From Austropuccinia psidii (lineage: Eukaryota > Basidiomycota > Pucciniomycetes > Pucciniales > Sphaerophragmiaceae), in NCBI GenBank assembly GCA_023105745.1, contig JALGQZ010000007.1:2897592-2961591 (forward strand): 64,000 bases of DNA, written 5' to 3'. Under the pieces are notes generated by a model that was not told where the DNA came from, did no database searches, and worked only from the letters and a program-made list of their open reading frames with translations. Position numbers and translations under genes: made by a program. Of the stretch, positions 29,980 to 50,700 are shown in pieces (within the stretch, counting starts at the first letter, position 1; every line of letters starts with the position of its first letter).

Positions 29980-30025
29980 CACCAGGGCAAATCTCGCGTC
30001 AATCGTTGGCAATTGACTTCACATC
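29980..30025 (+). repeat. Left terminal inverted repeat
   Basis: It begins CACCAGGGCAAATCTCG and pairs with 50652-50697. Four differences were counted over 46 bp, each CpG in the right arm versus TpG or CpA here, or the reverse. Confidence 0.92.
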
Positions 30026-30165
30026 GCACCGCAGTCAGTATAAAATCTTGCTTCAGTCGTGTTAGTGTCACTTTATAGTCACTGGATTTAGTGGGTCACG
30101 TCACGTCAGCGTCAAGACAACGTCAATCATCACATGTGTCACATGAGAATGTCACTCAAAGCCCA
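30026..30165 (+). repeat. Left subterminal region with ACGTCA-type motifs
   Basis: Several copies of GTCAC, ACGTCA and ACGTCAA occur (for example near 30098-30130), mirroring ACGTCAAG-type words at the right end. Clustered subterminal motifs are typical transposase-binding sites in CACTA elements; that role is inferred. Confidence 0.5.
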
Positions 30166-30342
30166 AACCCATTTCAACACTATGCGCAACGTTCGTGTAA
30201 TTTCACCTCATTGGCTTCCGCCTCCCCGACGCTTAGCATGCTTACGCACCCGCACCGCCATCCATCCAGATGAGACTCCGACACTGCCCGCCCCTCTCCG
30301 TCCTCACCACTCCTTACGCTTTCACACCCCCGCCCCTACCAT

Positions 30343-30790
30343 CCTTACGCTTGTGTAGTACCCTCCCGACATGCCTCCGACAACGCTTACCATCCTTACG
30401 CTCATGAAGTGCCCTCCCGACATGCCTCCGACACCACTTATGACCCTTACGCTTGTGTAGTGCCCTCCCGACATGCCTCCGACACAGCTTACCATTCTTA
30501 TGCTTGTGTAGTGCCCTCCCGACATGCCTCCGACAACGCTTACCATCCTTACGCTCATGTAGTGCCCTCCCGACATGCCCCCGCCAACAGTTACCCTCCC
30601 TCCCAACATTCTCCCGACACTGCTTACCATCCTTACGCTCATGTAGTGCCCTCCCGACATGCCTCTGACAACAGTTACCCTCCCTCCCGACATTCTCCCG
30701 ACACTGCTTACCATCCTTACGCTCATGTAGTGCCCTCCCGACATTCCTCCGACAACGCTTACCCTCCTCACGCTTCCGTATTACATCCAT
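30343..30790 (+). repeat. Minisatellite of 51-bp units with 84-bp variants
   Basis: CCCTCCCGACATGCCTCCGA recurs at 30361, 30412, 30463, 30514 and 30565 (51-bp spacing), then in variant form at 30649 and 30733 (84-bp spacing). Because 51 and 84 are multiples of three, long open frames appear on both strands (about 30314-30904); these are repeat artefacts. The core CCTTACGCTTGTGTAG resembles the 40-bp array at 35.6-36.2 kb. Confidence 0.88.
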
Positions 30791-30798
30791 AGTGTACA

Positions 30799-30808
30799 GT
30801 ACGGTGGC
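30799..30808 (+). promoter_or_regulatory. Half-site of the 24-bp palindrome upstream of the 31.3-kb gene
   Basis: GTACGGTGGC matches the left arm of the palindrome found at 33676, 35589, 40486 and 46384. It lies about 0.5 kb before the predicted start at 31321; the right arm is not conserved. Confidence 0.35.
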
Positions 30809-31320
30809 TTGTTGGCGTTCACGATGAACGCAATTGCCGAAATATGCTGAGTGGCCTTCTCTGCCAACAGGACCTAAGGGGATATTGGTCAGTATATTCA
30901 CCATGTTGTGGTTAGGGTTTGAATCATGAGACTCACAAATTAAAACCTAATAAGTGGACTATTTAAGACAAGAATTGTGTCTCCTGTTTTGCCGACAAAA
31001 CCATTTTATTTCATATCAATCAAATGAACACTTTGCTTAGTCCTTACCTCATGAGCGTTGAATAGTTCAAAAGTTGACTTTAGTAGGTTTCTCACTAGTA
31101 AACTTTATTCAATGTCTCACAGGGAAGTGATTTCATTTGCATGATATGAAATAATTTGCAAAACATCGCCTCCTTCAATTTCCCGACAAATTGCATTTTG
31201 CAAATGCGATTATTTTACTTGCACCTTTTTTCTTCAATTTGGATCTTTTTATTCAAAAATTTTCAAACAAGTTATCAATCAACTCGTCACCATCTATTTG
31301 CTTAATAAACTACCTCCGCT

Positions 31321-33557
31321 ATGGCCCAAACCCCGGGAAATTCAACTCAATTCAATGAATGACCAACTTCAGCCCCAGAGAGTGGAAGTGAAATCTCTGA
31401 TATTGCCAGTAGTCGTGAATTAGGCATTGAAGTAGAGAGCCAGTCACATGAAGATAATCAAGATCCACCAGTTCTTCCGGAATGTGAGTATGCATCCATC
31501 TTGAATATTTCAAATCTCTCAAAACCTGATATTGTGTCATAGCCTTTATTTCAGGGCAGCCTCCAAGCTCTCAGAAACCGAATTTTAAAAGTTATGAGAA
31601 GGAAAAGACTGTTGAACCTTGTGCACCGACAGAAGATGATGGGCAAGATGATGTAATTTTCAGTGGGGAGGTGGAAATTATATCCAAGGAACAATTTGTC
31701 TCCAACATTGCTCAGACAATCCCAAGGCTTGAAAAAATTCAAAATGATAGTAAAATTCCTGATTATGTGCGTCAAAAGATTGCTGAAGCCATGAGCCTGC
31801 TCAAAATGGATTTGAACCGTAAGTCCATTAATAACTCAAATCAAAATTGATAAAAATAGCTGCTTACAATGTATGGGCAGGTGTGGAGGTGGGAGAATCT
31901 CTACCTGAAGCATCTTGAGTCGTAATTGGATTTCCAGGCAAAGGATTAGGAAAAAGACCAAATATACATGCGACCAAAAAAACAAACAAAAAACGCCGTA
32001 CCTTTGAAGCCGCAAACGATTCTCGCGATCAAGGTCATGAAATTATCAATGTTGAAGGGGACCATATTGATAATCAACCTCCGCATACTGAACCCCCCCC
32101 AATACTCAATGAAACAATCCATGATGAAGCTCCACATACTGAAAGCCCCCCGATACCCAATGAAACAATGCATGATGCAACCCCTCCCGCCTCTCCTTGG
32201 AATATTCAAGCCTTTCAAGCAAGCGAAACAATTAAACATGATACAATGGCACGAGATATGACTGATATAGTTCCCAACGCTGAGCCCGAAGTGTCATCCG
32301 CTGCGAATTTTCAAGGAATATTTTTATCCCGCATGGAAGAGTTTGCAGGCATTTTGAATTATCATTCCAATATTTCTCAACAATAATGGAAAAGGGGGCT
32401 TGATAATATCAATAGGATTTACAAAAATAGATGGGACAATTTACCAACAAAGGATGCTCATACATTCCTTCCTGTTGGTATTAAGTTGATCAGTAACCGA
32501 GAGCTTAAAATGTCGGCCTGGCTGGAAGACCTTGAGATGGCAGGTGAGTTTTATCTTTGTGCATGATACATGATTATTGGCTGTTGACTGGTGATATAAA
32601 TTGCAATATACAGGGTTAGATTTTTTTAAGCCAACCGAAACAGAAGCGTTTTTTGATCACAACATTTGGAATCTCAAATTGATGAAGGAATCAGCTAAAC
32701 CTCCAGATAATCTCCCAAAATCCGAACACTCCTTCTTCAAAATGGTTCAGAGCCTTCTTTACCCCGCCAATCCAGTTAAACATATTTGGGCAAATGTCAT
32801 GTTTGAATCCATTAGTTTAGTCTCATACGATGTGATTGCACCCAAACCATATGTTGCACCAACATCAAATTCGACCGATCCTCTTGGACTCGAACGCGGA
32901 GCAGTTGAATACCTTGCCTCCTGCTTGAGTAAATCGAAGCAACGTGCAACCCCACTCAGCATTGAAGGTGGCGGGGCTGACAATGAGATATCCACAAAGC
33001 GGCACAAGAACCTGGAGGATCTAATGGATACAGTTATCCATTTGATGATTGCGTACAACATGGTACGTGCACATACAAAGGTCGAAGTTAATGGCATCAA
33101 AGGAAAACTCACAAACTCAAAAAAAAATGAGGCCATCAAAGATCTTTTGACGTGTCACAAGAATCTCGGAATAAATCGAATTTGCTATGGTATATTAGCG
33201 GCATTCTGTGCGGCGGGGGTTCGTGGTTTGATGGTATGCTCAGATGACTGGAGAACAAGCTCAGTTAAAGGGGCTTTATCACTAATTGACATTTCCGCAA
33301 AACTTTCAGAGGGTAAAAATCTAGTGGAGCCAGTGTGGCTACGTACTAATAAGTATATATGTAATTTACTGAATAAAAGTTTCTTCTCATCAGAGTCTTT
33401 TAACCCCGCTGTACCTCTTAGATTTGAATTTGCACGATGCTTAGTATTAGACTTTGGTGATGCCTGGGTGGCGAAACGCGGGCTTGGTTCAAGTGATGAG
33501 GTCACCTTGACGGTACCCAGGTCAGCTAAACTCACAACCAGGATTGACCCGTTTTAG
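31321..33557 (+). pseudogene. Uncharacterised transposon-borne protein, five-exon gene with three nonsense codons
   Basis: I do not recognise the family. From ATG 31321 (MAQTPGNSTQF) I infer exons 31321-31483, 31555-31818, 31881-32543 and 32614-33557, joined by GT-AG introns of 62-71 bp; an additional intron would be needed for five exons but is not seen, so four exons are supported. Stops within exons are TGA 31360-31362, TGA 31916-31918 and TAA 32384-32386, all derivable by one C-to-T change from CGA or CAA. The N-terminal half is acidic and low-complexity with a basic patch (KKTNKKRRTF). The C-terminal block (32614-33557) is uninterrupted, with GLDFFKPTETEAFFDHNIWN, CHKNLGINRICYGILAAFC and ARCLVLDFGDAWVAKRGLG. 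No membrane segment is clear. Conservation of the last exon suggests recent function, possibly a transposition accessory protein. Confidence 0.65.
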
Positions 33558-34133
33558 ATTAGCTTTGTACTAGATAGATTGTAATTGAATTTTGCAAAGT
33601 TATTTATGAATTTAATAATCATGACTTCCTATCCTACTACTGCCCGGATGCCACAGTCTGAGTACCAATAGTAATTGTACGGCGGCATGCCTCCGTACAT
33701 CATTGCAAAGACTCCGACAAGACGCAAGCTGAGTCAGGCGATGTGCCCGCGATAAGCACACGCGGGTGCATTGCGGGAAGTCGCGTTTATCACTTCCCGC
33801 CAGCCCATAATAGTCCAAATGTTCCTGTGTCTTTCAAGAGGACTAGGATAGCTAGGGATCCGCAGCAGGATGCATATTGCATTTGCGTGTGCTTGCAAGA
33901 TTCCAAATGGTTGGATTGGAAAGTGATTGCATGGGAACATCAATGTGTAAAATTGAATAATGCACTATCCACTGCCATTTTCAGGTTCAGGTATTTGAGC
34001 TCGTGAATTTGCCAAGGTCAGGCGTGAGCTTTATTTTTAGCCGCAATTAGAAAAGATTCATCCACCACAATCCAATTTAGGTGATATTAAGAAATCAGTA
34101 ATCATTCGGTTTCATTTCATTTTCTGCTGAAAG
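33558..34133. other. Intergenic region between the 31-kb gene and the TET/JBP gene
   Basis: No gene is supported. It contains the palindrome copy at 33676-33699 and CpG-rich DNA to about 33880; open frames on both strands lack domains. Confidence 0.5.
33676..33699. promoter_or_regulatory. 24-bp near-palindrome, copy 1
   Basis: Left arm TGTACGGCGGCA; the right arm read in reverse complement is TGTACGGAGGCA (one mismatch). It lies about 0.43 kb upstream of the TET/JBP start and is a candidate operator or transposase site. Confidence 0.6.
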
Positions 34134-35463
34134 CATGCCATTCACGAAAAAAGGAAAAGAGGGTAAAAGGGAACTCGCGAGAAAGCGTTGGGCTGAGGAA
34201 GGAAAGTGTGAGTTACTCGCTTAATCTCAGTGTATATATGCTTCCACATTTATGTGGCACCCTCATTGGGCCCCACGGAAGAACATTGGCTTTAGTCGGT
34301 TCAGATTGTGCCAATGTCATGTGGGCTCCAACAGGGAAGTCAAAGGATGTGTGCCGAAGAAAGCTCCTTGGCAGTATCTGATATCTTGTGTGCTTCAACA
34401 CATAGTGATCCCTCAACCACTCGGGAATAGTAGCAGATCCCAAAAGACAAATGAGCGCAAAACGACCCGAATGAATAGGTTGTTTTCCTCCTCTCTCCCA
34501 ACAGCACAAATATCAATGCCAGTTTCAGCAAATATCACCCCAAGTGAAATTCGGAGGGTTGTGGATGTCAATCAGATCAAACGCATTCACTTTGGGCGTG
34601 TGGCAATTTTCTCTTCAACCGGATTACTCATTGCCCTTGTCGAATTCCGACCATTCACAACAATGAGTGAAGTCGAGGTCGATCAATGGGATGAATTATC
34701 ACAATTCCTATTTCGCGAAAAGAGATTCACCGACCCGATTGCAACCAATGGAGCATTACTGGAGGGATTTATGTTCGCGATTGGGTGGTGCAAATGCAGC
34801 ACCAAGAATGAACAATTTGGTCTGTATGGAAGTGTTGGGAAAATTGGAAACGCAAAAGATGAATGGCAGAACCGAGGTCCCAATCTTAGCTCGGTGGGTT
34901 GCATTCTAGGTCAATCCTTACGATATGTTGGGGATAATTTATTTGAGAGGATTCAAAATTGCTACAATTCATTGGGGGTTCCATCTTTTGATCAAGTCAA
35001 CTATGAAGGCGATATTCCGGCAAATCAGGGTGCATTCGAGTTCGCTTCCGCACTCACTTTCACCATGAATGGATTCAAAAACGCACCTCATGTTGATAAG
35101 GATGCATCGCTGTATGCTTCGCGATGGTGGTTTCAAGCTGATAAGCGGACCGGCCAAATTCAAAGAGATGCGTCAAAGCGGTGTACAGGTGGAAAATTGA
35201 TTTTCCCAAATGAGCATTTTTGGATTGATCTATCCGCATGTCATGGGCTAATTCAGGTAGTGTGGGCCAGTAGTACATTTGTTCATTATACTGATCCAGC
35301 ACAGGACAACGAAAGCACAACACTAGTGGGTATGTCCGCACAATGCTCAAGCAGGTTAGCAAAAACAATGCGGCAAAAAAGCCATGGCTATTATGAGATT
35401 GGCAAGAGAGCGGGCTACCAGATCAGGGATGGTAATACAATCTCATGCCGATTCAAAGAATGA
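34134..35463 (+). CDS. TET/JBP-family 2-oxoglutarate/Fe(II) dioxygenase
   Basis: TET/JBP enzymes oxidise 5-methylpyrimidines in DNA in the nucleus. The main open frame is 34252-35463. Within it, NAPHVDKDA supplies the iron-binding HxD pair (His at 35089, Asp at 35095). GGKLIFPN and then FVHYTDP supply the distal His (35284). The order HxD, GGxxxxP, distal His and the spacing fit fungal TET/JBP domains. A basic first exon from ATG 34134 (MPFTKKGKEGKRELARKRWAEEGK in part) ending at a GTGAGT donor near 34209 is plausible, but its acceptor is unclear; internal Met 34471 is another possible start. I do not see a clear 2-oxoglutarate-binding Arg at the expected place after the distal His (VGMSAQCSSRL), so activity needs an alignment. 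There is no nonsense codon in the domain. Confidence 0.75.
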
Positions 35464-35588
35464 GGAGGTTTGCATGTGTGTTGGGTAAGTAATGGTGGGG
35501 TAAGGCAGAGGACAATATACATGAGGATTGGATGGATTCTAGTGCGGGAGATGGGGTTTATGACATGAAAAAGGGGTGAAGTGGATTA

Positions 35589-35612
35589 TTTACGGTGGCA
35601 TGCCATCGTACA
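35589..35612. promoter_or_regulatory. 24-bp near-palindrome, copy 2
   Basis: Left arm TTTACGGTGGCA and right arm TGCCATCGTACA, with two mismatches between arms. It lies 126 bp after the TET/JBP stop and just before the 40-bp minisatellite. Confidence 0.6.
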
Positions 35613-35624
35613 TCTGTCCTGGTT

Positions 35625-36205
35625 TGTTGCTATTGTCCAGGATGCCGATGCTTCACACGCGAATCCTTATGCTTGTGCAGGTTCCGCAAACGCTAAATGT
35701 TCCTTACGCCTATGGGGGGTGCCGACGCTACACACGCCAATCCTTACGCCTGTGCAGGCTCCCAAAAATTTACACGCCAATCCTTACGCCTTTACAGGCT
35801 TTCGACAATTCACACGCCAATTCTTACGCTTGTGACGCTTCCCCACAATGCTGAAATTTTCTTGGTCTGTGCAGGATCCCAAGAATTCACACGCCAATTC
35901 TTACGCCTGTGCAGGCTCCCAACAATTCACACGCCAATGCTTATGCTTGTGAAGGGTCCCAAAAGTGCTAAAATTCCTTACGCCTGTACAGGCTTCCGAC
36001 GATTCACACGCCAATCCTTACGCTTGGGAAGGTTGCCAACAATGCTGACAAGTTCTTACGCCTGTGCAGGCTCCCAACAAGTCACACGCCAATCCTTATG
36101 CCTGTGCAGGCTCCCAACAATTCACACACCAATCCTTACGCCTGTGCAGCCTCCCGACAAGTCACACGCCAATCCTTACGCTTGTGAAGATTCCAGACAA
36201 TTTAA
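35625..36205 (+). repeat. Minisatellite of about 40-bp units
   Basis: CACACGCCAATCCTTACGCC followed by TGTGCAGGCTCCCAACAA recurs, for example at 35888, 35928, 36083, 36123 and 36163 (40-bp spacing), with diverged units from about 35625. Open frames through it (35576-35854, 35697-36221) are repeat-driven and not called genes. Confidence 0.85.
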
Positions 36206-36620
36206 ACAATTCAATACATGAGTAAGATTAATAGCGTGTGACCATAGGAAAGGCCATGTTTCACAAATCTGGAGTGGATTGCTCACATACGGGAACCTCC
36301 CGCTGTTTTACAGTTAAGAATGGATATGGCTCTAAACCATGGAAGAAGAAAATATAGGAGACGGTAATGGCAACTATTGGCACATTTTGGGAAAAAGAGG
36401 TTCACAAAAACAAATACTCACTCAAACTCTTGGTGGGGCACTTACAAAAATAATTCTCACGCAATCAGGGTTTTTCTCTAAGGAGGAAATAAATAATTTT
36501 TACGTGAACAAAGAATGTAATAGAAATTGAACATAAAAATGATTGAATACAAATAACTTATTTAAAATAAAGTATTACAAAAGATAAAAAGTGGAAATAA
36601 TGAGATTTTTTTTTAAATTT
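36206..36620. other. Spacer between the minisatellite and the minus-strand cysteine-cluster gene
   Basis: It contains a short open frame (36339-36530) without recognisable features. AT content rises towards 36600, which would form the 3' region of the minus-strand gene. Confidence 0.4.
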
Positions 36621-37987
36621 TTATTTTTCTAAGTATTTTGAGACTATTCCGGTAATGTCCTCCTTTGGATAAGCCTCCAGTGCCTGGGCAAGGAGGGAGT
36701 TTAGTTCCTCCCGGAATTCCAGGTGCATCTCATTTCGATGAGTTGCATCCACGAAAGGAATCATGTGGAGCAAGCGACGATGCTCCAACAAGATTCGGTT
36801 GATCGAATCGTGGACGATGGCTCGAGGAATCATTAGGGTTGGTTGCAGGTCGGTGAATTCCTGGCGAGCGTCATCGTGGGAATGAGACGAGGTTGGCACC
36901 GGGGGGGAGGAGGCGTTGGGGTTCTCGGGGGCACTGGAAGGGATCTCTGGGGAGGGAACCGGGGTTGGAGTGGAGGGGGGGGAATGGAAGGGGAAGGTGG
37001 GCGAGTCGGGTAAGAAGAGGGGGGGGGAGGGGGATGGGGAATTGGGGATCCCATGGGCGTATTGTCGATGATGATTATCGAGCGAGGAGTGGCGGGACGA
37101 TCTGGAGACGGTCAAAGAAAAAATGAGGAAAAGAGGGTATGGATCGAAGAGAAAGAAGGGGTGACTTACCATAAGCTTCCTCCGTGGATTGCGTAGGAGT
37201 CACCTCAGGTTCTGGCTCACGAGTCGTATCGTCCTCAGGTTGTTGGGACGTTGGACTTGGGCCAGGAATAGGTGGCTCTTTGGTTCGGGAGGGTTCTAAA
37301 AAAGGAGGAAGAGTCAGTTCACTCGACTCGAAAGTGAAAGTGAAAATGCAATGAAACTTTGGCTGCTTACCGCGGAATAATTCCTCAGACCATCGGGTGC
37401 CACTCGGGCCTGGAGTTGTTTGCCGGGGGGTTTGCTCGCGAGGCAAACTAGGAACGGGAGAGTCTTGTCGGGGGGGATTCGGGGGGTTTTGTTCTATGAG
37501 AAATGGAAAAAAGTCAGTATTATTGCGTGAAGATAAATGAGAGAAGGAGGAGAAAGAAAACTTACTTTGGCGTTTGAATCCCATCGGTGACAAGACATGG
37601 TGACGATCAGCCCAAGCTCGAATGTCCTCTTGCCATCGCCATCCTTCATCGGCCGGATAATCACTTCGCTCCGGTTGAGGAGTGAAGTGACCATTGGATG
37701 GTGGCCTAGGAGGGGGAGGGGACAGGGCTAATTGTCCGGAATCGTTCCCATTGGCCTGTTTGGGGGCCCGGCGTCCATTCACGCTCGGAAATGGTTTCAT
37801 CATTGTCGACCACAAAGGAGTCCTCGCGAGGGCGTCTTGGGCGAGAACTCTTCTGGCCTCGTGGTCGGAAGGGGTGGACAACGAACGAACATTTCTTGTG
37901 TGCTTGTCGGCAAGCATCACAAGCGTCGTTCGTCGTCGAGGAACGAATGCAGGGGATACCCCGCTTGGTGCATAAAGTGCACAACAT
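36621..37987 (-). pseudogene. Cysteine-cluster protein, four exons with two apparent frameshifts
   Basis: The N terminus, MLCTLCTKRGIPC followed by ACDACRQAHKKCSF, is a six-cysteine pattern resembling fungal Zn2Cys6 DNA-binding clusters but with altered spacing. Predicted exons (minus) are 37987-37566, 37493-37371, 37295-37170 and 37101-36621, with clear GTAAG donors and CAG/TAG acceptors. The middle is Pro/Ser-rich and disordered. The C terminus is helical in character (HDSINRILLEHRRLLHM; REELNSLLAQALEAYPKED). Following the coding signal requires a frame change near 37770 in a C/G run and another near 37020 in a G run. These may be real mutations or homopolymer sequencing errors. A role as a DNA-binding regulator is inferred from the cysteine pattern alone. 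Confidence 0.6.
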
Positions 37988-38568
37988 CTAAAACAAAACA
38001 ATTAAGGTTAGTAACTGCATACAACGTAAACAATCAAGAAAGAAAATGAAGGCGTACGATGAATTATATAAATTTAAAACGGAATCAAATTAAAAACGCT
38101 CTAGTCGGAAGTTTTTAAAAGTCTGGAAGGAAGTCATGAAGAAAGAAAAATATTAATATCGGTACATAATGTTGACAAAAGTTAAAAAAAGAGGTAACGC
38201 ACAAGGTGGATAGAAGGGAGGTTCTGAACGGATCAGAAGAATAAACAAACAGGCAAAAGGAAGGGAAGTGGGTTTAGTGGAGTGCAAAAGACAAAAATAG
38301 AAAGGCAGGAAGACGAAGGGGAATACGCACAAGAAGGACAAACGCGGGTGAGGTTGAACGAAGTGGAGCGGGTGAGAAAGAAAGTGAAGTGCGTGTCGTG
38401 TGAAGATGGTCTTTTATACCATGGTGAAGCTGAGACGATCTCAGCAGTTGCAGCACCCGCAAAAGTCTCAGCTTCAAGGCGTGTGGGCAAAATTGAAGCT
38501 GAGTCTCAGCGAATGCTGCAACTGAGAAGTGAAATGCTCGCGTGAGGCAGAAGAACAATGGGGGTCTG
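37988..38568 (-). other. Upstream region of the cysteine-cluster gene
   Basis: No gene is supported. It contains the inverted repeat GCTGAGA-CGA-TCTCAGC near 38428-38444 and further CTGAG/CTCAG words to 38520, which could be regulatory for the minus-strand gene. Confidence 0.4.
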
Positions 38569-39268
38569 GCTGAGTATTGCAATTTATTGAATTGTCAAGC
38601 TGAGTCAAATCCCCTTTGTTTCCTTAAATTGCCACCCGATCACCCAGGAGGGTGGTTGTGAGGCCCTTATTGAATGTGCATTGTGGGTGCAATGCACAAG
38701 TGACCGCGGCAAGATCACCGGCCTTATGGCCTGGTGATAGGCTTTGAACAAAGGGGGGGCTGTAAGACAAGTGAATACAGCATGAGCTTGCCTCGACCCA
38801 TTGCTCAGGTTTGCTTTCAGGTCATAATTGAAATGCTCAGTGGCTGAACATTTTAATTGCACAGTAATTGAACAATTGATATAACAATATCAAATGGACA
38901 GCTGAGTATTGCAATTTATTAAATTGTGAAGCTGAGTCAAATCCCCTTTCTTTCCTTAAATAGCCACCCAATCACCCAGGAGGGTGGTCGTGAGGCCCTT
39001 GTTGAATGTGCATTGTGGGTGGAATGCACAAGTGACCCATGCAGAAATGCACCCGGTGCATTTGGTCACAAGTGACCGCGGCAATATTACCAGCCGTATG
39101 GCCTGGTAATAGTATGTGAACAAAGCGGGGGGGTGTAACACAAGTGAATACAGCATGAGCTTGCCTTGACCCATTGCTCAGGTTTGCTTTCGGGTCATAA
39201 TTGAAATGCTCAGTGGCTGAACATTTTAATGGCACAGTGATTGAACTATTGATATAAAAATATCAAAT
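38569..39268 (+). repeat. Direct duplication, two units of about 332 and 368 bp
   Basis: GCTGAGTATTGCAATTTATT begins both units (38569 and 38901), and both end in GATATAA-AATATCAAATG. Unit 2 has about 36 extra bases near 39031-39070. Each contains an inverted repeat around CCTTATGGCCTGGT. It is non-coding as far as I can see. Confidence 0.85.
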
Positions 39269-41016
39269 GCACCATGCTGAGCCATTGCTCAGTCTTTTTT
39301 GTATGCCCACAATCTGAGCATTTGGCACAGCAGCGGGTGACATTTCAGCCAGCTGGAGCATTTCACACGCTTTGGTGAAGTGCTCCAAACTGAGCCTTCC
39401 AAAGAACTATTGCAAAAATAGTTCATTCCATGGCTTTACTGAGCACTTTCACACGGTGCTTTTGACCATGATATGCTCAGCTTGCGTGTGAAAATTGGGT
39501 GAAACGCAATGCTGAGCATGTGGCACATGAGCTACGTATATGCAAACAATCAGAAGGTGCATGCACATTCGCTATATGCATGCAGGCTCAAGTAGTATAA
39601 CACCTTCCTGATCTGTACAGTACAGCCAACACTGTAGTACGCAGTACACCTGTGTAAATGTATGCTGCGGGGCAGAGCAAAAGCTGTTCAGCAATGTAAC
39701 ATGAAAATCACGTCAGGCCATTGAGTCATATATCTCAACTGCATCCCTTTGGTGCACCTTTTTGCAGAGCTCTGCCTAACAATGGCATAGACACGGGTGT
39801 AATCCGAGTTAATGAAAGTGGGTCATAATGGGATGACTCATTATTTGGGTAATACACAAACAGTGGATTCACTCCGGTGCCATTGTCGGGGCCAACAATG
39901 ACTGGCCCTGCTTGTTCATTGCGCGTGCTCATTGTCGGGCAGCCACATGCTTTCATACGCACCCCCCAACGGGTCATACACAGGCAACTTTAACACGCCT
40001 GGAAGACATTTTACTGCCAGTGTTCCGACCGGCTAGTTTCTTGGTCGGGTGGTCAGCTTGACTGCAGACGCTCACCTGCTCGTGCGTGGAAACCTGAGGC
40101 CAATCAGTGTGGATTTGCTTCAGCCTCATCCCCATCAGAATAATCCCAGCCTATGATTGCTGTGACTGGTTATGTTTGCGTGGGTATCTCCCACCGCGGG
40201 TAATTTTCTTCACGTTCTCACACGCCCCGCGCAAGTTGTGGCACCTGGCTTGCAGCCAGAAATTCCCTTGGGTGGGTGACCTCTTTCTCCGGAGTTTTGT
40301 ACACGCGTGAGGCAAAGACCGTGATCCCAATCTCTGGGGAATAGTAGCCTCCTCAAACGCAATAGGGGTGAATGTAGATGTGGATCATGCCTCACGGTCG
40401 GTGCCCCGTTTGATCATGCCACACTTCCCCCCCTGAAGCCTAGTTGGAATCAGTCATCAAAAACCTTCATGCAAAACCAAAGTCATGTTCGGTGGCATGC
40501 CACCAAACATATCTCACCCGCCCACACACAAACATCCCCACAGTGAGATTGCCCTTTGAAACGGCCAACATTGCCCAGTAGGTCCCTGTGCTACAATTAA
40601 CATGGGGAAGATATATATGCATCCATGTTCACTGTCACACCAGCAAACATGACTGCATGCCTCTGATATGCCCTCCACAATAAGTTGCTACAACCCACCC
40701 AATTTCGGATATGCTAATGTCAACCTTGTTCCACCAAGGGTTTTGTACCTTGCTGCAGATCCAGCAGTCATATCGGTGCACCCACATTTTGGCCACCTTG
40801 CCTTGATATATGCCCCAAATCAAAAATGAAAATTATGAGCCCAAGAGGCCCATCCCCATCAAGACCATGCACGTAACCACAGGCCATCCCCCCTTGACCC
40901 CATTGCTGCCACTCATATAAGTTCCCCATCTGCGCCTATTTGTCTTCATTCCGTTTAGCTAACCCTTCCCGATCATATAATTCCCAACTGTCCCCAAATA
41001 ATTTAACATAGCCATC
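39269..41016. other. Non-coding region upstream of the SNF2 gene
   Basis: From 39270 to 39530 there are repeated TGCTGAGC/TGCTCAG words. Further on are CpG-rich segments and the palindrome copy at 40486-40509. Short open frames on both strands lack domains. Confidence 0.5.
40486..40509. promoter_or_regulatory. 24-bp near-palindrome, copy 3
   Basis: Left arm TGTTCGGTGGCA and right arm TGCCACCAAACA, one mismatch between arms, with the symmetry extending one base each side. It lies 0.5 kb upstream of the SNF2 start. Confidence 0.6.
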
Positions 41017-43583
41017 ATGTCAACCCCTTCACAACCACTTTGCATTGGGATGATTAATATTCGTATTCAAATAAATAGTGATATAACCTTAAAGCCTGAG
41101 AATTCCAACTTAGGTTCTTGGATTATCCTATGGCACAATCAACACAACATATTCGTATATCTCCCCAATCACCAGCATGCTATTGGCTCTCTCCCGGGAA
41201 CCCTTTCCCAAACGTTGATACCATTCCTTGGGGCACCAAAAACGTTCATGCACTGTGGTCCTGGTGGGGCATGGATTGAAAATTGCCAAACCAATCCTAC
41301 TCAAATATTATTTGTTGAGGGAGTATTTATGACTGATTCAAATGATCCCTCCTCATCTCAGAAACCCAATATAGCATTGATGTTCTTCACATGGTATCCA
41401 AACATTCTATTCATAATGGAAACCTTTCGAACACAAGATTTCAAGCTTAAAATGCCCAAAGAATATGACTGTACTACTCATTGTCAATGTCAACTCTTTA
41501 CTCCGACATTTCCCACTTCAAACTCGACGCCTGCTTCATATCCTGCTGTTTCATCATTGATTTCCAAGCAAAAACTGATACAATTACCCAGTGGATCAGA
41601 CCTCCCCATGATGACCCCGCCCCATGCCATTATTCAAACCCCCCTCCTCCCTCATCAAAAGACCGGACTAGCTTTTCTCTGGGATCGAGAAATCCCCAAT
41701 GGCCAATCAGCCCGTAACCTTTGGGCCACCTCACCCCCAGGATCCACTTTCAATGCCAGGCACATCATTACAAACAAGGTCGTTAGCTCATTCAAATCCC
41801 TTTCGACCAATAGACCTCTTGGAGGACTGCTTGCGGATGATATGGGATTAGGTAAAACCATTCAGGCCATTGCTCTAATTGGTACCTCCAAGGAGCGGAT
41901 GATTGCAAACCCCCATCGCTCCACGCCCACCATGATCATCTGCCCCCCTCGCTTAATTACCAACTGGCAATCAGAAATATCCAAGCATGCTCAGGCTGGA
42001 GCGCTGCATTCCAAAATCTACCATGGTCCCACTCGTCACTCATTATCCAAAGACAACATCTTAGAATATGATATCATCATCACTTCTTACAATACTATCA
42101 CCCAACAATTTAAGCAAACCAATCCCTCTACATCAATCATTTTTCAAATCAATTGGCATCGTATAATTTTGGATGAATCACAGTGAGTGTCTGATCTTAA
42201 ATGATTCAAATTACCTTTTATATCCAATAACCCTTGCCCCATCTTATAGCTATATTCGCTCTCAATACACTGCCACTCACCGTGCCATTAATAGCCTCCT
42301 TTAATCCCGCCGAATATGTTTAACGGGCACACCTATTCACAACACCATTTATGACCTTTTGGGCATAATATCCTTCATCACTCAACCCCAGAGCGCCGAT
42401 CAAGATAACTGGTCACCATTCATCCTGAGTAGTCTTTCCAAAGGTTGCAATGATATCTTGCATTTGGCATTGCGGCATTTAAGTTTGCGCCGCACCAAAA
42501 CCACACATCTCGAATCCCTCCCCACTATTAGCCATCATTATGAGCTGCTCCCACTCAACCCGACCATGCAGCAAGAATATTCCATATTATATGAAGAATT
42601 CCTATCATCCAAAAGCAAAGGACCAGGAGAATTTTTCAGAAATATTAATAAGCTGCGAATATGTTATAACCATCACATCATGCTTAACACAATTGCGGAG
42701 GCGGATTTGGAAGACCCCGAGGGCAGGAGCACTCAGGATAACTCGCCAACAATCACACAAACTATTGTGGATGTGGAAACATGCATGATGAGTAGTAAAA
42801 TTACACACCTCCTACAAAGCTTAATGAAGAACAAACAAACAAGGTGTGGTCCAACCAAATCGGTGGTTTACTCCCAATGGACCCAATTTCTAGATTTATG
42901 CGTTAATTCTAATATGCATCCATTACCAATTGAATCTATCTGACTTTTTTATATTGTAGAATTGGTATTGCCCTTGCCTATCACTCTATCCTTTCAGCAC
43001 GAATTGATGGAACAATTACAGCACGAGCACAGGAGAAGGCACTGGAGAATTTCTTCAATAATCCTGAATGTGAAGTACTGATTGCATCCATTGCCGCAGC
43101 TGGAACTGGCCTCAATATAACTTGTGCTAATATGGTCTATTTAATGGTGAGGGGACCCCCAAAATTCTGCCCTGATTTGCGGCCCCTGACATCCACATTT
43201 CCAGGAGCCCAATTGGAACCCAGCCATTGAGGCTCAGGCTGTTGATTGACTCCATCGTATTGGCCAACAACAACCTGTAAAGGTCATCCACTATATCACT
43301 CCTCATTCAGTTGAGGTCAACATGCGGAAGGTACCTTTCAAGATCATCTTTCACTTGATTGTATTACTATTCTGAAATCCTTCCTTATGGGAATGCCATA
43401 TTCCAATCACCAATAGGTCCAAGAAAAGAAAAAATCATTAACTGCGTGAGCCTTACTGATATTATATAATTTGTCTTTGACCAAGTTGATAACTCTTGTT
43501 TACCCTGGCATAGGTCCACAATTCTGAACACCATGAGTTGGATCGAACTCCTTCAATATTTTCTCAATGAAAATGAGCAATAG
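41017..43583 (+). pseudogene. SNF2-family DNA-dependent ATPase, Rad5/Rad16/HLTF-like, with two nonsense codons
   Basis: SNF2 ATPases translocate on DNA and remodel chromatin in the nucleus. The N-terminal 200 or so residues are unassigned. LLPHQKTGLAFLWDRE (Q-motif-like) precedes the Walker A block ADDMGLGKT (Lys-Thr at about 41854-41859) and IICPPRLITNW. The first intron (42183-42249) completes motif II across the splice as DESH. LTGTPIHN (motif III region), VVYSQWTQFLDL, RIDGTITARAQEKAL, AAAGTGLNITCANMV (motif V) and HRIGQQQPVKVIHY (motif VI) follow. Later introns are 43147-43204, 43331-43416 and 43446-43513; the junction near 42900-42960 is not resolved. TAA at 42302-42304 and TGA at 43247-43249, just before HRIGQ, break the frame, and both fit C-to-T change. 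The gene is otherwise well preserved. Confidence 0.85.
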
Positions 43584-43738
43584 AGTCTTATTTCTAAGGG
43601 AGACGGTGATACAGTCCAACTCATATTGTCTATATTCTGACATATTTAGCAAGTTTCATCTTTAAGGATTAATACTCAGATTGTATTACACCTGCACAAA
43701 TAATTCACAAAATGATAATTTGTAACGGTGCTATACAT

Positions 43739-45810
43739 TTATATTACTAAGTTATTGCAGAGCATCACCATTTGGCCTAATAACTGGCATGTCAAGTATC
43801 TTGAGGGCGCTAGTCTGCATCTTACTACAGCCTTTGAGCCAATCTTGATCAAATACCTGAAATGATAAGCCTTCCGGAATATCACCATCATCTGTCGATC
43901 GTAATTCTGGCAATCTATCAATAGTTTTTTTACCCTTTTTTTAATGCGATTATAAAACTCTATGTCTCGATCAATTTTTAATACCAATTCATTAAATAAC
44001 TGGGAGCGCCAGCGTAATCCCACTTTCCGGTAAACTTGACGGCCATTTTCCAGTACCTCCTCAGTATCTGAACATACTCGAGGGTCATTGAATTGTGATG
44101 CTAGAATGGGAAATTTAGCCATATCACACCATTCACAACGGCGCTCACAGGTCTGCACATAATGAAGTAGATCATCATCAGTCTTTGCTCACAATGAAGA
44201 AGAGATACATTAACTAACCCTTTGACGAATCTTTGCGAGCTTTTGATTCTCCTTCTTTTTAACCAAATACTCGGCATCCTTTTGAATAGACTTCCATTCT
44301 CTTTTCAAATAAGTGAAATATCGCTCCATTAAAGCCGCCACGACCCCATAGTTATTATGATCCTTGTTCCAACAGTAATGATGATACTTGGTGCTGACCA
44401 GTGCAAGACGGAATGTACGGTAAAACACCATAGACATCAGCTCATTGAACGGATGTTGCCATGAGCTCTCCCAGTCCCAAGTGAATCGCTTTAGTCCTAA
44501 CTTGTGGAGCTCATTTTCGCAGTAGCTTTGGAAACCCTGAGACTGAACCTGTGTTGATGGCTCATTGAAAACATCCTCGGGGACATATCCGAGATGACCA
44601 GCCACTTGAATTGCAATTTCATGCTCTTCTGTGCTTGGTGGTGCTGGTAGTGAGGAAAAATCCTTATCCCTAACTTTGAGTAGGAACAGGCAATGTGCAT
44701 GTACTGCTGATCTCATTCCATGGACATTCTCTGGAAGTTCTGCTTTCAGCCATTTTTGTTGCTCCTTCTGGCTTGCACGTTTTGCCACATTGTAAGCTTT
44801 ACGAGCCTGGTTCCTTTGCTGTCTGACCTCGGATTGTTCAAGCATACTCTGGGCAAGGCCCATTTGAGGATGGGTGAACTCATTATTTGACTGAGTGCCT
44901 TGCTCATGCGCCGTAAAATTGTCACTCCTTGGTTCCTCATTTGTTTCCATTTGAGTTGGAGACATGTTCTCATCCTCATCATCCACAATTCTTTCTCTTG
45001 ATGAACTGGCATGAGATGTTCTTGGTTTGGAGGCATATGGATGATGACGTCCAATGACTTTCTCTTTATGGACCAGAGGTGAAGATGCATAAAGTTCATC
45101 ACCTGCCATGCACATCATTAGTTAACACATCAAAAAATTAATGAACACTGGTCACTCACAATCTTCAATTGGCTCCTGAGATCGGACTGACTTGCCTTTA
45201 GGTGCCATATCTAACCCATGAAACAAACATATCAAATGGTGAAAAAGGTTATACTCCGAAATTAAAATGACTTACTTTGATGAAGCGTCAATCCTGGATT
45301 TCCCTCCGACAGACCACTCCAAGTTACATTCTCCAATGGTCTTTTTCGTCGCCCCCCATCCACGCGCCTTTCATCACCCACATGAACCTGAGATCCTGAT
45401 GGAATATTGAGGGTTGGCTGTTTACTTTGGCCAAAGGGATCCTGGGATGCGACTGGATTCCGACCGGGATTAAGGAGGAACTCACGTGGAAATTTTGATT
45501 GGGGATTAGTGTGTGATGAGATTTGAGGTGTGCCTTCTGGCCCCTGAGACACATGCGTTTGTGTATTAGTGGGATTCGGGGGAATTGGAGTGACGGAAAT
45601 ATTTGGGATCGACCAAGTGCTTGAAGTTGGAGCCTTTGGATTGCCCACATCAATGTTAAGACCTGATACATTCATTGAGGATGCGATAGGGGTTGTGAGA
45701 GGAATGTTGGGACTCAATGGTGACTGTGTTTGAACATATTCTATGCTAGATTCACTATTTGAGTCATGAACAGAACCTGAACGGGATTTATGTGACTTGA
45801 AAGATGACAT
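43739..45810 (-). CDS. Uncharacterised transposon-borne protein, intact four-exon gene
   Basis: I do not recognise the family. Exons (minus) are 45810-45276, 45210-45160, 45102-44219 and 44182-43739. All introns are GT-AG and the joined frame has no stop, about 640 residues. The N-terminal third is Ser/Pro-rich and probably disordered (MSSFKSHKSRSGSVH). A basic alanine/glutamine-rich helix (QQRNQARKAYNVAKRASQKE) follows. The central domain contains ENELHKLGLKRFTWDWE and NELMSMVFYRTFRLAL. The C-terminal exon has a cysteine group (CERRCEWC) and many Arg/Lys. It is divergent from the transposase gene, 0.96 kb away. This is the best-preserved gene in the transposon, so a function in transposition or DNA binding is a reasonable guess, no more. 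Confidence 0.65.
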
Positions 45811-46771
45811 AAGGGCCGAAAAAGTACAGTAATATTTTTAACTAGATAAAACACCTCAGTATTATGATAAAATAGAGTGATATGAGATGAAATCTTTTCA
45901 AATTTAGAATAGAGAAATTCTATGAATAGTTGGAACTAAGTGTTGCGTGAAAGTCCAATAAGCCTCTTTTTAGGAGAATCCTCCCTGCCTCCTCTTGAGC
46001 TCTTCCGCTTTTATCGGAAACCACCCAGCATGGCCTACCACCCCATAATGTAATATTTCCTTGATCTCAAAGGGGACCCATCATCCATAAGTAATCATAT
46101 TTGGTAACATTTCCGCCTCCCCATTGTCACATTTTGTGAATTATCCAAACTGCCAATATAAGCATTGAAATTACACAGCATTGTACATCTGTAAAGGGGT
46201 ATATTGATGAAGGATTTACCCACAAAAGAGACATCACCTTTTCAAGAAAGGCGAGACAATCCAACTCACATTCCAACCGATTAAAAGCCTGCTGCACTCA
46301 AACCAAATACCAAGACTTTAGCTGCACTCCAACCCCTTATGTAATAGAGTTATATCGTTATGTCTGTAATAAGGTTTAAGCCATGTACAATGGCGTGCCA
46401 GCGTACATGGTTTGAATGTCAATCCCCTCAAATCAATGTTGACACATCCCTATTGAAACACCCCTCAAGGGTCAAAACCGCAGTATCGCCATGTGTAAAT
46501 AAAATAGAATATGTATGAGCATTGAGCAGCATGGCATTTTACCCAATTAAACTCCTAACCAATTCCGCCATCCAGATGGGACATGTTACACTCCATCAGC
46601 TGCAGCTCACGCACCATTACAAATGGGATAAAATTCTCAGATGGCTCAAATCATCTCCCCCTTCATAAACAATCACTCAATTTTTTTTCCAATTAATAAC
46701 ACTCCTAAACACTTTCACATCAGCCATAGATATTTATACACAAACCAACCATACTCCCAATTCCTGCAACA
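45811..46771. other. Divergent intergenic region between the 43.7-45.8-kb gene and the transposase gene
   Basis: It is AT-rich, without a supported gene. It holds palindrome copy 4 (46384-46407), positioned to act on both divergent genes. Confidence 0.5.
46384..46407. promoter_or_regulatory. 24-bp near-palindrome, copy 4
   Basis: Left arm TGTACAATGGCG and right arm TGCCAGCGTACA. The arms match at 9 of 12 positions, and the symmetry continues outward (CCATGTAC...GTACATGG). It lies 0.37 kb upstream of the transposase start. Confidence 0.55.
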
Positions 46772-49700
46772 ATGACAACCCGCCGCTATTCCTCAATGCG
46801 TATATGCATGTGTCAACACTGCTCAACTCAAACACACTCTTCCCCTGAGGGTGATAGGCCTGGAGTTGCCTTCACACCTTTCCAATAGAAACAGCACATT
46901 AAAAAGCTCAAATCAAGCATTGCACCCAAATCTCTTCCAAACATCCCTACTTCTGCATCAGGATCTGAGTGCCCACAACTTCTTTTGGATCAAATATTCC
47001 CAGCTGATTATTCACCATTGACCCAAAGCACCTTCTCCACAGCACCGGGGCTCAATTCAATTGCACAGAAACCATACAGCAGCAGTCAAACCCTTCCTCC
47101 ACAAGACCTTGGAATGATAATATCTGCCATTCTATCATTAAGGTATAATATACCCCGCCGGGCTTCACGCATTCTCAACCCCGCCCTAAACCTGCTGATC
47201 AAGTCCAGCATCTCAAGCTCCGGTGGTCCCCCCATTCCTGCATTCCATATACATCAAGATCTGAGTACCATATTTGAACATCTCCAATTGGAGCCAGTGA
47301 TTCAAAACTATATATGTTGTCCTCAATGTTTCTCTCTTAATGGCCTTACTGAATCAGTCACAACTGACCAACCCCACTGTCAACGCCATAATGACCCAAA
47401 TGATCATGATCCCCCTTGCACACAATCATTAGGCAAATTCATCTATTCATCTGCCCCCCACACCCAAAACACAACCAACATGAAGCAAAAATTTATACCA
47501 ACAAAACATTTCATTTATCAACCATTCAAAAATTGGCTTGCCAGATTTCTCCAGCGGGCTGGAATTATGGACATTCTGCATCAACATCAACAATCCCAAA
47601 CTCCCGAAGATTCCCCAAAATGTGACGTCTGGGATGGATTGGTCTGGAGACGCTTCACTGGCACTAGAAATATCCATGACCCCCCATTCATGTCCATTCC
47701 TGGTGCATTGGCCTTCTCCATTTATGTGGACTGGTTTAATGCACATGGAAAGTCAACCCGGTTGGCCAGCATTGGACCTATCATGCTTATTTGTCTTAAT
47801 CTCCCCCCCAGTGAAAGATTGAAGCCAGAGAATGTCTATGTTGCAGGAATCATCCCTGGTCCGAAGGAGCCAACTTCCCTTCAATTGAATTATTTATTAA
47901 TGCCACTCATCAAGGAGCTCAAAGAGCTATGGCAAGGTTACCATTTTTCACCCACCTCAACAGGTCCTTCAGGATCCTTTATCCATGTTGCCATTCTCAC
48001 AGCCATTGCGGATGTGGTTGCCATGCGCAAGCTTACTGGATTTATTTCCCATTCAGGCAACCACTTTTGTAATTTTTGCACCATTCACAAAGCTCAAATT
48101 GAAGAAATTGGTCCTCAATTTCACTACACACGCTCATATCAAAATCATAAATCAACCATTTCCAAATGGCTTCGGGCAACCCCACAACAAAGACAAGCAA
48201 TTTTCTCTGAGTATGGAGTGCGATATTCAATTTTAGAAGACCTTCTGTATTGGGATGCAACCAGAATGGTTAATCTTGACATAATGCATAATTTAATACT
48301 TGGAATTTTGAAGGATCATGCAACTTTCAAATTGTGCATTCCAGAGTCCAAATCAAAAATTTACCTCAGGTCCGGCAGGAAATCCAATGACACCAACAGT
48401 TCAGACTCAGATTCCATGACCTCCAACAGCTCTCTTGAAAAAATCACATTGAGAGAGGCCCGCTCCCTGAGAAGAGACGCAGCAAAAATAATAAATGAGC
48501 CACTCCCCACTATTTCCACCCGAAAAAACTACTTCCCAATGCGCACCCCTCACACGGAACATCCATCTAGTGGTTCTGCGGAGATTCCTTCATTTGATGC
48601 GGATTACATCCCCACTTCTGAAATCCCCTCTGAATTGGATATCACTGCACTGAGTGATCACCAGATCAAGGGTGAGGCTCTGGAGCATCTCTGAGACGAT
48701 AATTCCCTCATCATGGACAAGAGTACCTCGCAACATGGGTTCCCCCTCTCATGGTAGCTTAAAAGCCGCTGAATGGGCTCTCTTATATAAGGTCTATATT
48801 CCATTTTTAATGCTCAGTCAACAGATGTCATTAGATGTACACCAATCCGCAAACATTCAAAGAAAAATGGGTCAGTCAGAAGAACTTGCAAATGAACTAA
48901 CCAAGAATACATTCCATTTGATTAGTGCTATCAACATTGCCACAAGTTGGACTGTTTCAATAGGAGATGCGACTGCATTTGCTGAGCATTGGAAAAAATT
49001 CCGCCTTTCCAATCAACTCCTGTTCCCAAAACAGAAAAGTAAACCAAATCATCATTTTGCTGATCATATTCCGGAACTCTTCCAACGTTGGGGCCCTGCA
49101 CAAGCCTCAGCCACATGGGGTTATGAGCGCTTGATTGGAGTATTTGCAAAAATGCCAACAAATAACAAAATATGTACGTCAATTAATAAGATCAATATAT
49201 TCACATTGATTAAACACCTGAACTGAATAAGATTAACTTCTTGCAACTCTGAATAGATGATATAGATAAAACCTTACTTCAACATATCTGTCAATGTTCC
49301 AACCTTTCCGTTCTCCTGAAATCCCCATCCGTGCCATGTGAAATAAAACAGCTTTTCGAATCACAGCCACCTGCCCTGTTCAATGACCATAAATATAACA
49401 AACCATCCCGCCATGACCAAGAAAATTATGATTGCCTGGTTGAGTACTTACAGAATTTTCATGCAACAAGGGAAATAGTTGATTGGATCAGCTTAGACAC
49501 TACCGTGCAACCCACAAGTCCTCCCACTTCAAGAATTGTCTCACCTTGGTATTTTCCAGTTTCAAACATTAATATTGGGAACAATATATTTTCAACTGAA
49601 TCCAAAAATGTCAGCAACAGTGTGATATGTTTTCTGAGGGGCAACTCACGACGATTTGGTATTATTAATAGCATTTTTAAAGTCTCTGAGCCATCTAGCA

Positions 49701-49918
49701 TACTGAAGAATAACTTTCTGATCTTAAAAACTTTGAAGATTGATGTTAATTTCTTACCAGATTGGCCGCATCTGAATATTTATAAAGCTGTTGGTTTTGA
49801 TGATGGACACTTGATTATATCTGAAGAAGAAATAGAAGGTAACTGTGGATTGTATGATAACAAAGTTCTGTCATGTGGACTGCTTGTAATGATAAAGCCG
49901 TTATTTCATGAAATTTAG
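46772..49918 (+). pseudogene. Tnp2/CACTA-type (CMC) DDE transposase, one stop and one frameshift
   Basis: It catalyses cut-and-paste transposition of this element by binding its ends. From ATG 46772 an N-terminal cysteine patch (CMCQHC) is followed by TAG 46886-46888, then a long frame to 48694. Domain signatures include YICCPQCFSL, the Tnp2-like core FSIYVDWFNAHGKS, SIGPIMLICLNLPP, AGIIPGPKEP, AIADVVAMRKLTGF, HFCNFCTIHK and MVNLDIMHNLILGIL. A frameshift near 48668 moves the signal to another frame (VPRNMGSPSHGSLKAAEW; HHFADHIPELFQRWGPA; WGYERLIGVFAKM). Probable catalytic acids are the Asp in YVDW or a neighbour, the Asp in AIADVVA and the Glu in YERL. An intron (49174-49256) precedes the last exon, which ends at 49918. 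The stop fits a C-to-T change (CAG to TAG). Confidence 0.85.
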
Positions 49919-50184
49919 TCTACAGAAATGCAAATCTCTCAGATTCATTAGCAATTTGGCTAGTGAAATAACTGCCTCAAAATTTAGTGACAGAGACATG
50001 CCATTGTGACAAGCAAAGCCCATTATTTCACATTGCCACAAAGAACTTACTATTTTGACATTGGGTACAGTGTGAATAAGCCAATTTCAATGATCAAATG
50101 ACCCACACACTCACCTTTCACAGCATCCGAAATTTCTAACTGCGCCATCATCATGTTGGAAGGGGAAGCGGCCCTTGCGCACCT
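49919..50184. other. Spacer after the transposase gene
   Basis: No gene or repeat is recognised between the transposase stop and the CA-rich minisatellite. Confidence 0.4.
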
Positions 50185-50302
50185 GCACGCGCACACGCCA
50201 ATGCACACACAAGCGCACCCGCACACGCCAATGCACACGCAAGCGCACCCGCACCCACACACGCCAATGCACATGCAAGCGCACCCGCACCCGCACACGC
50301 GG
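50185..50302 (+). repeat. Short minisatellite of CGCACACGCCAATGCACACG-type units
   Basis: About four units of roughly 26-36 bp (CACACGCCAATGCACACGCA, then AGCGCACCCG) run in tandem. The alternating purine-pyrimidine CGCACA composition could favour Z-DNA. Open frames on both strands here are repeat artefacts. Confidence 0.8.
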
Positions 50303-50559
50303 TTATGTGCGGCGGGCTCTACCAGTGTCACCTGCAAAACAACAATCCCGCTCAGGCGGAGTCCTTTTATGGATGACCTGGTGAAGTCAAACCCCCCGCC
50401 TACATCAAGACTGGCTGAAGGACCTCTTTGATGTGTGTTTGTGCAAACAGGCGGGTCTTGTGTAATTTTTACCAACCATTGGACGGTTGCGGGATGATCA
50501 GGTGGTGAGGAATCTGATTTGAAGGCACAGGGGAACCAATATTGGTGGATGTCACAGGA

Positions 50560-50651
50560 TTTGGTGTAAGACAAGAGTGTGACGTGTGCTCGACGTTCGC
50601 TTGATTTTTGCTTGACGTGAGCTCGACTTTTATCCTGCTTGACGTTTGCTT
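50560..50651 (-). repeat. Right subterminal repeats CTTGACGT / CTCGACGT
   Basis: At least five variants of GCTTGACGT, GCTCGACGT or GCTTGATTT occur at about 10-25-bp spacing just inside the right terminal repeat. They mirror ACGTCAA words at the left end and are likely transposase-binding sites by analogy with CACTA elements. Confidence 0.65.
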
Positions 50652-50697: not shown

Positions 50698-50700
50698 ATT

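What the first reader, a model, noticed from the sequence alone, without database searches (positions are those of the whole stretch)
34134..43583. TET/JBP dioxygenase and SNF2 ATPase carried together by one DNA transposon
The transposon encodes a likely 5-methylpyrimidine oxidase (HxD, distal His) and a Rad5/Rad16-type SNF2 protein 5.5 kb apart. In trypanosomatid JBP2 these two activities are fused in one protein. Expanded basidiomycete TET/JBP genes have been linked to KDZ transposons; here the transposase looks Tnp2/CACTA-type instead. A self-derepression or mark-editing module that opens methylated chromatin around the element is my hypothesis.
Basis: partly seen in the sequence, partly recalled or inferred. 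Interest (0 to 1): 0.9.

Follow-up and report, generated by a model that had tools for sequence, protein, structure and literature searches.

The report
Transposon carrying TET and SNF2 genes
A 20.7-kb jumping gene of the myrtle rust fungus carries, besides its transposase, a TET-like DNA-demethylation-type enzyme and a DNA-motor (SNF2) gene that both look selected for, so it probably helps the element escape the fungus's DNA-methylation silencing.

Summary
Confirmed, with corrections. The genes lie inside one 20,718-bp EnSpm/CACTA-type transposon (29980-50697; TIRs CACCAGGGC..GCCCTGGTG, 3-bp duplication ATT) inserted in a Ty3/gypsy element of the myrtle rust Austropuccinia psidii. The 34-kb protein is a Tet-like 2OG-Fe(II) oxygenase (PF20515, 142.6 bits, HxD plus distal His), not a PF12851 match. 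The 41-43.6-kb gene has six exons and encodes a 741-aa SNF2 ATPase closest to Rad5, without RING or HIRAN. The window's SNF2 copy is dead (two in-frame stops, one lost splice donor); one of six copies reads intact. TET is open in 14 of 18 copies. The pair co-occurs in most copies tested, and variants shared between copies show a deficit of amino-acid changes in TET, SNF2 and transposase and no nonsense changes (0 of 230; 10.5 expected). Transitions at CpG are about 16 times commoner per site than at other C/G, the scar of 5mCpG. TET on rust EnSpm transposons is already published (Kojima 2025); SNF2 is not mentioned in that main text. I favour a two-component anti-silencing cargo, a split analogue of trypanosomatid JBP2. 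Catalysis and cooperation are untested.

The parts
29980..50697 (+). EnSpm/CACTA-type transposon, 20,718 bp, TIR CACCAGGGC..GCCCTGGTG
   Evidence: TIR pair; window and 4 of 6 fetched copies show identical 3-bp duplications at both ends
29977..29979 (.). target site duplication ATT, left (right copy 50698-50700)
   Evidence: joined flanks continue the gypsy reading frame
30286..30812 (+). left subterminal array of about 51-bp CpG-bearing repeats (CCTTACGC motif)
31321..33557 (+). U1, gene of unknown function (start by eye; exon ORFs incl. 31919-32386 and 32595-33557)
   Evidence: ORFs; no Pfam match over cut-off for these two ORFs; merged with TET in two MF-1 predictions, P0200 and P0229 (by eye)
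34252..35463 (+). TET-like 2OG-Fe(II) dioxygenase, 403 aa from first Met; 5' end uncertain
   Evidence: PF20515 142.6 bits; open in 14 of 18 full-length copies; selection
35654..36241 (+). internal array of about 40-bp repeats just downstream of TET, sharing motifs with both subterminal arrays
36621..38001 (-). U2, putative fast-evolving gene, unknown
   Evidence: ORFs; copies 92.9-95.7% identical, against 96.4-98.4% over the other gene regions where matched in full or nearly so
41017..43583 (+). SNF2 (Rad5-like) gene, exons 41017-42182, 42250-42897, 42960-43146, 43205-43330, 43417-43445, 43514-43583; broken in this copy
   Evidence: (gene model; 741 aa intact in copy c3a)
43742..45810 (-). 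U3, unknown protein; its 303- and 191-aa ORFs are uninterrupted in all 6 copies (window included) where this region was read
46772..49918 (+). Tnp2-type (EnSpm/Plavaka-like) transposase gene, broken in this copy; 837-aa main ORF whole in 1 of 6 copies (c13)
   Evidence: PF02992 56.5 bits; c13 copy 56.0 bits and Plavaka 26.5 bits
50192..50268 (+). right subterminal array, motif CACACGCCAAT

Best explanation
A young, high-copy EnSpm/CACTA family of Austropuccinia psidii carries a TET-like dioxygenase (presumably Kojima's PU type; not tested by tree) and a Rad5-like SNF2 translocase as cargo besides its transposase. Most likely mechanism (inferred): the host methylates new copies at CpG; the SNF2 motor opens nucleosome-packed or protein-bound element DNA, perhaps guided by an element protein bound to the CpG-bearing repeat arrays, and the dioxygenase oxidises 5mC there, which blocks maintenance methylation or leads to removal. 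This re-activates transcription and exposes the ends for the transposase. Proteins may act in trans, since the window and all six fetched copies have at least one broken gene. Shown: the element, gene content, co-inheritance, constraint, CpG decay. Inferred: catalysis, targeting, cooperation.
For: Discrete element with identical 3-bp duplications in the window and 4 of 6 other copies. TET match and metal-site conservation. Intact 741-aa SNF2 with motifs incl. DEAH, AAGTGLN and DRLHRIGQ and five GT-AG introns in copy c3a. Co-occurrence: TET in 9 of 10 SNF2-picked copies, 7 of them (near) full length; SNF2 across the whole stretch read in 5 of 10 TET-picked copies, over 880 nt in 1, at the edge of the stretch in 1; SNF2 region present in 5 of 6 fully fetched copies. 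Shared variants: N/S relative to neutral 0.64 TET (P 0.036), 0.53 and 0.44 SNF2 exons 1 and 2 (P 0.013, 0.042), 0.35 transposase exon 1 (P 0.00065); shared nonsense 0 of 230 against 10.5 expected, summed over 8 segments. CpG transitions 176 variants at 416 CpG C/G sites against 86 at 3,263 other C/G sites, summed. Published: TEs hypermethylated at CpG in A. psidii, younger families more (PMC12774611). Precedents: mutating JBP2's SNF2 residues inhibits its de novo base J synthesis (PMC10057400); Spm TnpA activates Spm with demethylation (PMC10398659).
Against: No catalysis, expression or methylation data of my own. PF12851 not matched, and both fold predictions failed (pLDDT 38.7 and 39.6). The window's SNF2 is dead and only 1 of 6 copies intact, whereas TET is open in 14 of 18, so they may not depend on each other now (TET is also the shorter gene). 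Three of ten TET-picked copies show no SNF2 where expected; one is an internal deletion. The P values for TET and SNF2 are nominal among eight segments; U1, U3 and transposase exon 2 show no significant deficit; TET singletons show a similar deficit (0.62, P 0.032), so the shared/single contrast is not clean for TET. Shared CpG variants can be parallel changes. The element is itself CpG-decayed, so any protection is incomplete. Linkage in diverged families was not tested (genome search did not complete); neighbouring gene tags in strain MF-1 were no better than chance for SNF2-TET (4 against 1.76, max 7).
Confidence: 0.55

Rival explanations
1. Two independent cargo genes: TET counters methylation, while the Rad5-like motor serves replication or repair of transposition gaps, or strips the transposase complex, and has nothing to do with methylation.
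For: Closest solved relative is Rad5, a DNA-repair protein (205.7 bits against 152.9 for the next). The genes lie 5.5 kb apart with opposite-strand ORFs between. A copy with TET but SNF2 deleted exists.
Against: No RING or HIRAN match, so the ubiquitin-ligase part of Rad5 (recalled) is missing; co-carriage with TET repeats the JBP2 pairing.
Confidence: 0.25
2. The SNF2 protein is a decoy or competitor of the host DNMT5 maintenance methyltransferase, whose SNF2 part is of the Rad8 (Rad5-like) group; it blocks remethylation while TET oxidises.
For: DNMT5's SNF2 is described as related to fungal Rad8 (PMC13297926, passage); the element's SNF2 is Rad5-like.
Against: No entry named DNMT5 or Rad8 among the 60 shown of 82 PDB matches or the 60 shown of 66; an intact ATPase motif set suggests an active motor rather than a mere decoy.
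Confidence: 0.1
3. Passengers: both genes are chance captures carried by a successful element, without function.
For: Broken in 4 of 18 (TET) and 5 of 6 (SNF2) copies; singleton variants look neutral in SNF2 (1.22 and 1.00).
Against: Deficit of amino-acid changes and absence of nonsense among variants shared by copies; conserved splice sites and catalytic residues.
Confidence: 0.1

Closest known systems
TET+ EnSpm DNA transposons of rust fungi (Kojima 2025, PMC12730594)
   Same: 3-bp TSD, CAC..GTG ends, EnSpm/Plavaka-like transposase, TET-like gene; related EnSpm families are reported from A. psidii, and Austropuccinia TET clusters A1-A4 are described
   Different: SNF2 does not occur in the main text; the three TET+ EnSpm families it describes for rusts are from P. 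striiformis; Table S1 and data files could not be read here
Trypanosomatid JBP2
   Same: pairs a TET/JBP dioxygenase with a SWI2/SNF2 motor needed for de novo modification (PMC10057400, passages)
   Different: one fused protein acting on thymine; here two separate genes on a transposon, substrate unknown, sequences not compared
Maize Spm TnpA; Arabidopsis VANC; maize MuDR MURA
   Same: transposon-encoded proteins that lower methylation of their own family (PMC10398659, passages and abstract)
   Different: not described there as dioxygenases; here a predicted oxidase plus a motor
KDZ (Kyakuja, Dileera, Zisupton) TET+ transposons
   Same: basidiomycete transposons with a TET gene
   Different: other transposase class, 7-8 bp TSD (PMC12730594)

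Membership tests
EnSpm/CACTA (CMCT) DNA transposon | CA(C)..(G)TG termini with TIRs and a short TSD (2-5 bp in the clade, 3 bp here) | tested here: met
EnSpm/CACTA (CMCT) DNA transposon | Tnp2/EnSpm-type transposase | tested here: met
   PF02992 56 bits, cut-off 28.6; Plavaka 26.5, cut-off 26.3, in copy c13
EnSpm/CACTA (CMCT) DNA transposon | DDE residues with C(2)C and H(3-4)H between second D and E | not tested
   no alignment made
TET/JBP dioxygenase | Pfam PF12851 Tet_JBP | tested here: not met
   not listed at E<=10; rang in no control genome and is uninformative
TET-like dioxygenase (PF20515) | match over curated cut-off | tested here: met
   142.6 bits, cut-off 27
TET-like dioxygenase (PF20515) | HxD and distal His | tested here: met
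TET-like dioxygenase (PF20515) | DSBH fold like CcTET or NgTET | tested here: inconclusive
   models unusable, pLDDT 38.7 and 39.6; no meaningful PDB sequence match
TET-like dioxygenase (PF20515) | oxidises 5-methylcytosine | not testable with these tools
   needs an assay
SNF2 family ATPase | PF00176 plus Helicase_C | tested here: met
   177.8 and 58.4 bits, copy c3a; motifs read by eye
Rad5/Rad16/HLTF | best-scoring relative Rad5 | tested here: met
   (PDB only; no tree)
Rad5/Rad16/HLTF | RING insertion and HIRAN (recalled as features) | tested here: not met
   no such Pfam match at E<=1
KDZ transposon | KDZ transposase, 7-8 bp TSD | tested here: not met
JBP2-like fused protein | dioxygenase and SNF2 in one polypeptide | tested here: not met
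   separate genes 5.5 kb apart

The most novel reading that the evidence does not exclude
A eukaryotic transposon family carries a two-protein anti-silencing kit, an oxidase of methylated DNA and its own chromatin motor, aimed at CpG-bearing repeats in the element: a split, mobile counterpart of JBP2 that drove amplification of CACTA elements in a gigabase rust genome.
Probability: 0.4. Interest if true: 0.8.

Novelty: new variant of a known kind. Interest (0 to 1): 0.62.

Why it matters
Transposon-borne TET genes are known in fungi, but their function has not been shown experimentally (PMC12730594 says so). An SNF2 gene kept beside one under constraint suggests that oxidation in packed chromatin needs a motor, as in JBP2, and gives a testable system: A. 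psidii has published 5mC data and many near-identical copies, some lacking one gene. CACTA elements are its second most abundant TE class (PMC12774611), so an anti-silencing cargo could bear on how rust genomes swelled.

Tried and rejected
KDZ or Plavaka membership as main label: rejected on ends, TSD and PF02992 score, though Plavaka exceeds its cut-off by 0.2 bits in copy c13. Fold check of the TET protein: two AlphaFold jobs failed, so no fold search was run. PDB sequence search for TET relatives: two insignificant endolysin hits, none with the profile. Gene-tag adjacency in strain MF-1: SNF2-TET 4 pairs against 1.76 by rotation (max 7), SNF2-U3 6 against 1.62 (max 5), TET-U3 4 against 1.80 (max 7); not used as evidence. 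That call used the listed 120 each of 273, 208 and 423 hits; one SNF2 and one U3 row without a tag were left out (119, 120 and 119 tags). Copy survey: one SNF2-picked copy has no element DNA in 6.7 kb where TET should lie; of TET-picked copies one carries an internal deletion of 40306-49303, one leaves the element at 39398, one shows no element DNA in the 6.5 kb fetched; one (L042) shows the start of SNF2 at the edge of the stretch, the rest was not fetched; one (L039) breaks off after 880 nt. TET intactness: two of 20 copies dropped as partial. Pooled pN/pS of TET without a mutation model was 0.49. Literature: all three terms SNF2, transposon and TET JBP gave 0 papers; of searches I saw listings only (15 of 61, 20 of 25, 15 of 52, 3 of 3), none with a title or abstract start on this. 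Iyer et al. 2014 is not held; supplements could not be read.

Full report
Host and setting. The window lies in an unnamed 1.015-Gb, 84-contig genome. The flanks hold Ty3/gypsy genes. CpG observed/expected is 0.16 and 0.09 in the flanks and 0.60 in the element, which has 44% GC.

The element. Inverted ends at 29979-30025 and 50652-50698 resolve to CACCAGGGC..GCCCTGGTG flanked by ATT/ATT. Four of six other copies show both ends with their own identical 3-bp duplication (ATT, AAT, CAG, AGT); in two the right end was not found in the DNA fetched. Joining the flanks minus one ATT lets the gypsy reading frame run through the junction in the frame of its RT and integrase ORFs, though that gypsy copy has stops elsewhere. 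The TET gene DNA gave 40 near-full-length places, window included, at 98-100% identity, and the SNF2 DNA 40 at 97-100%; each list stops at the 40 scored of over 3,000 candidates, so the copy number is only bounded below.

Genes. Left to right: U1 (+, unknown), TET-like dioxygenase (+), U2 (-, unknown), SNF2 (+), U3 (-, unknown), transposase (+). The dioxygenase matches PF20515 (142.6 bits). The transposase matches PF02992 tnp2 (56 bits) with weaker Plavaka similarity. Kojima classes rust transposons with these ends, TSD and Plavaka-like transposase as EnSpm (PMC12730594; I read parts 1-5 of 7 of the text, and a term search).

SNF2. The gene model has six exons. Donors and acceptors are GT and AG at all five introns in five of six copies; the window lacks one donor. 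Copy c3a reads 741 aa without interruption; the other five carry stops or frame-shifting deletions. PDB search ranks Rad5 first by a clear margin over the whole protein (205.7 against 152.9 bits) and a smaller one over the N-lobe (97.9 against 88.2). Only PF00176 and PF00271 match, so the RING and HIRAN of Rad5/HLTF (features recalled) are not seen.

Co-carriage. Of six copies picked by TET and fetched whole, five have the SNF2 region end to end (two of these with small deletions) and one is broken about 600 nt into it. Of ten further SNF2-picked copies nine have TET: seven from at latest base 10 of the query, one lacking its first 148 nt, one cut by the stretch. Of ten TET-picked copies five show SNF2 across the whole 1.5-kb stretch, one over 880 nt, one only at the edge of the stretch (upstream insertion; the rest was not fetched), three none. 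Extra DNA around the four copies without a match showed an internal deletion in one, a break-off at 39398 in one, and no element DNA in two. So both genes are normal content, with broken derivatives. Whether diverged families keep the pair is untested.

Selection and methylation scar. Variants were scored against the majority letter of each gene segment, with a neutral expectation that respects CpG and other mutation classes. Copies per segment were 20 (TET), 12 (SNF2), 11 (U1) and 6 (others). Variants found in two or more copies show N/S below neutral in TET, both SNF2 exons and transposase exon 1; U1, U3 and transposase exon 2 show no significant deficit. No shared variant is a nonsense change (0 of 230; 10.5 expected), while singletons have 26 of 428 (19.8 expected; sums). 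Transitions hit CpG about 16 times more per site than other C/G (176 distinct variants at 416 sites against 86 at 3,263; sums). CpG methylation and its decay in A. psidii TEs are published (PMC12774611 passages and section 20; PMC8063080 passages).

Repeat arrays. The octamer CCTTACGC occurs 14 times in the window, in the left subterminal array (7) and just downstream of TET (7), against 0.21 expected. CACACGCCAAT joins the internal array (7 exact) to the right subterminal array (3 exact). They look like CACTA subterminal binding sites (inference).

Mechanism. JBP2 shows that a TET/JBP oxidase can need an SNF2 motor (PMC10057400, passages), and Spm's TnpA that a CACTA element can lower its own methylation (PMC10398659, passages). 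I infer a two-protein anti-silencing cargo. Steps shown: anatomy, co-inheritance, constraint, methylation scar. Steps inferred: 5mC oxidation, remodelling, targeting, cooperation.

Novelty. TET on rust EnSpm elements is known. In the held library one search for SNF2, transposon and TET JBP together gave no paper, and the capped listings of four looser ones showed no title on an SNF2 partner; Kojima's supplement and Iyer 2014 were not readable, so priority is not settled. I rate it a new variant of a known kind.

Noticed in passing
window 43742-45810 (-): U3, an unknown protein whose 303- and 191-aa ORFs are uninterrupted in all 6 copies read there (a seventh, c2, is broken before it) and which has 423 database relatives; the 120 listed are all from A. 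psidii. Possibly a TnpA-like DNA-binding partner.
   Followed up: partly
window 36621-38001 (-): U2 region evolves faster than the rest of the element (92.9-95.7% identity between copies), with 53% GC and CpG O/E 0.92.
   Followed up: no
window 30286-30812, 35654-36241, 50192-50268: Three repeat arrays with shared CpG-bearing motifs, candidate binding sites of an element protein.
   Followed up: partly
window about 33790-34010 (+): An open frame upstream of TET resembles the N-terminus of MF-1 protein P0140 (by eye), suggesting a further 5' exon of the dioxygenase gene.
   Followed up: no
G000 C13 about 16.65 Mb (L041, L053, L054): An internally deleted element (40306-49303 missing) lies directly against a second partial copy that carries its own TET region.
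   Followed up: no
window 24917-25606 (+): Remnant of a DDE_Tnp_4 transposase (PF13359).
   Followed up: no
window 55862-56460: Long AT-rich tandem array with about 10-bp period.
   Followed up: no
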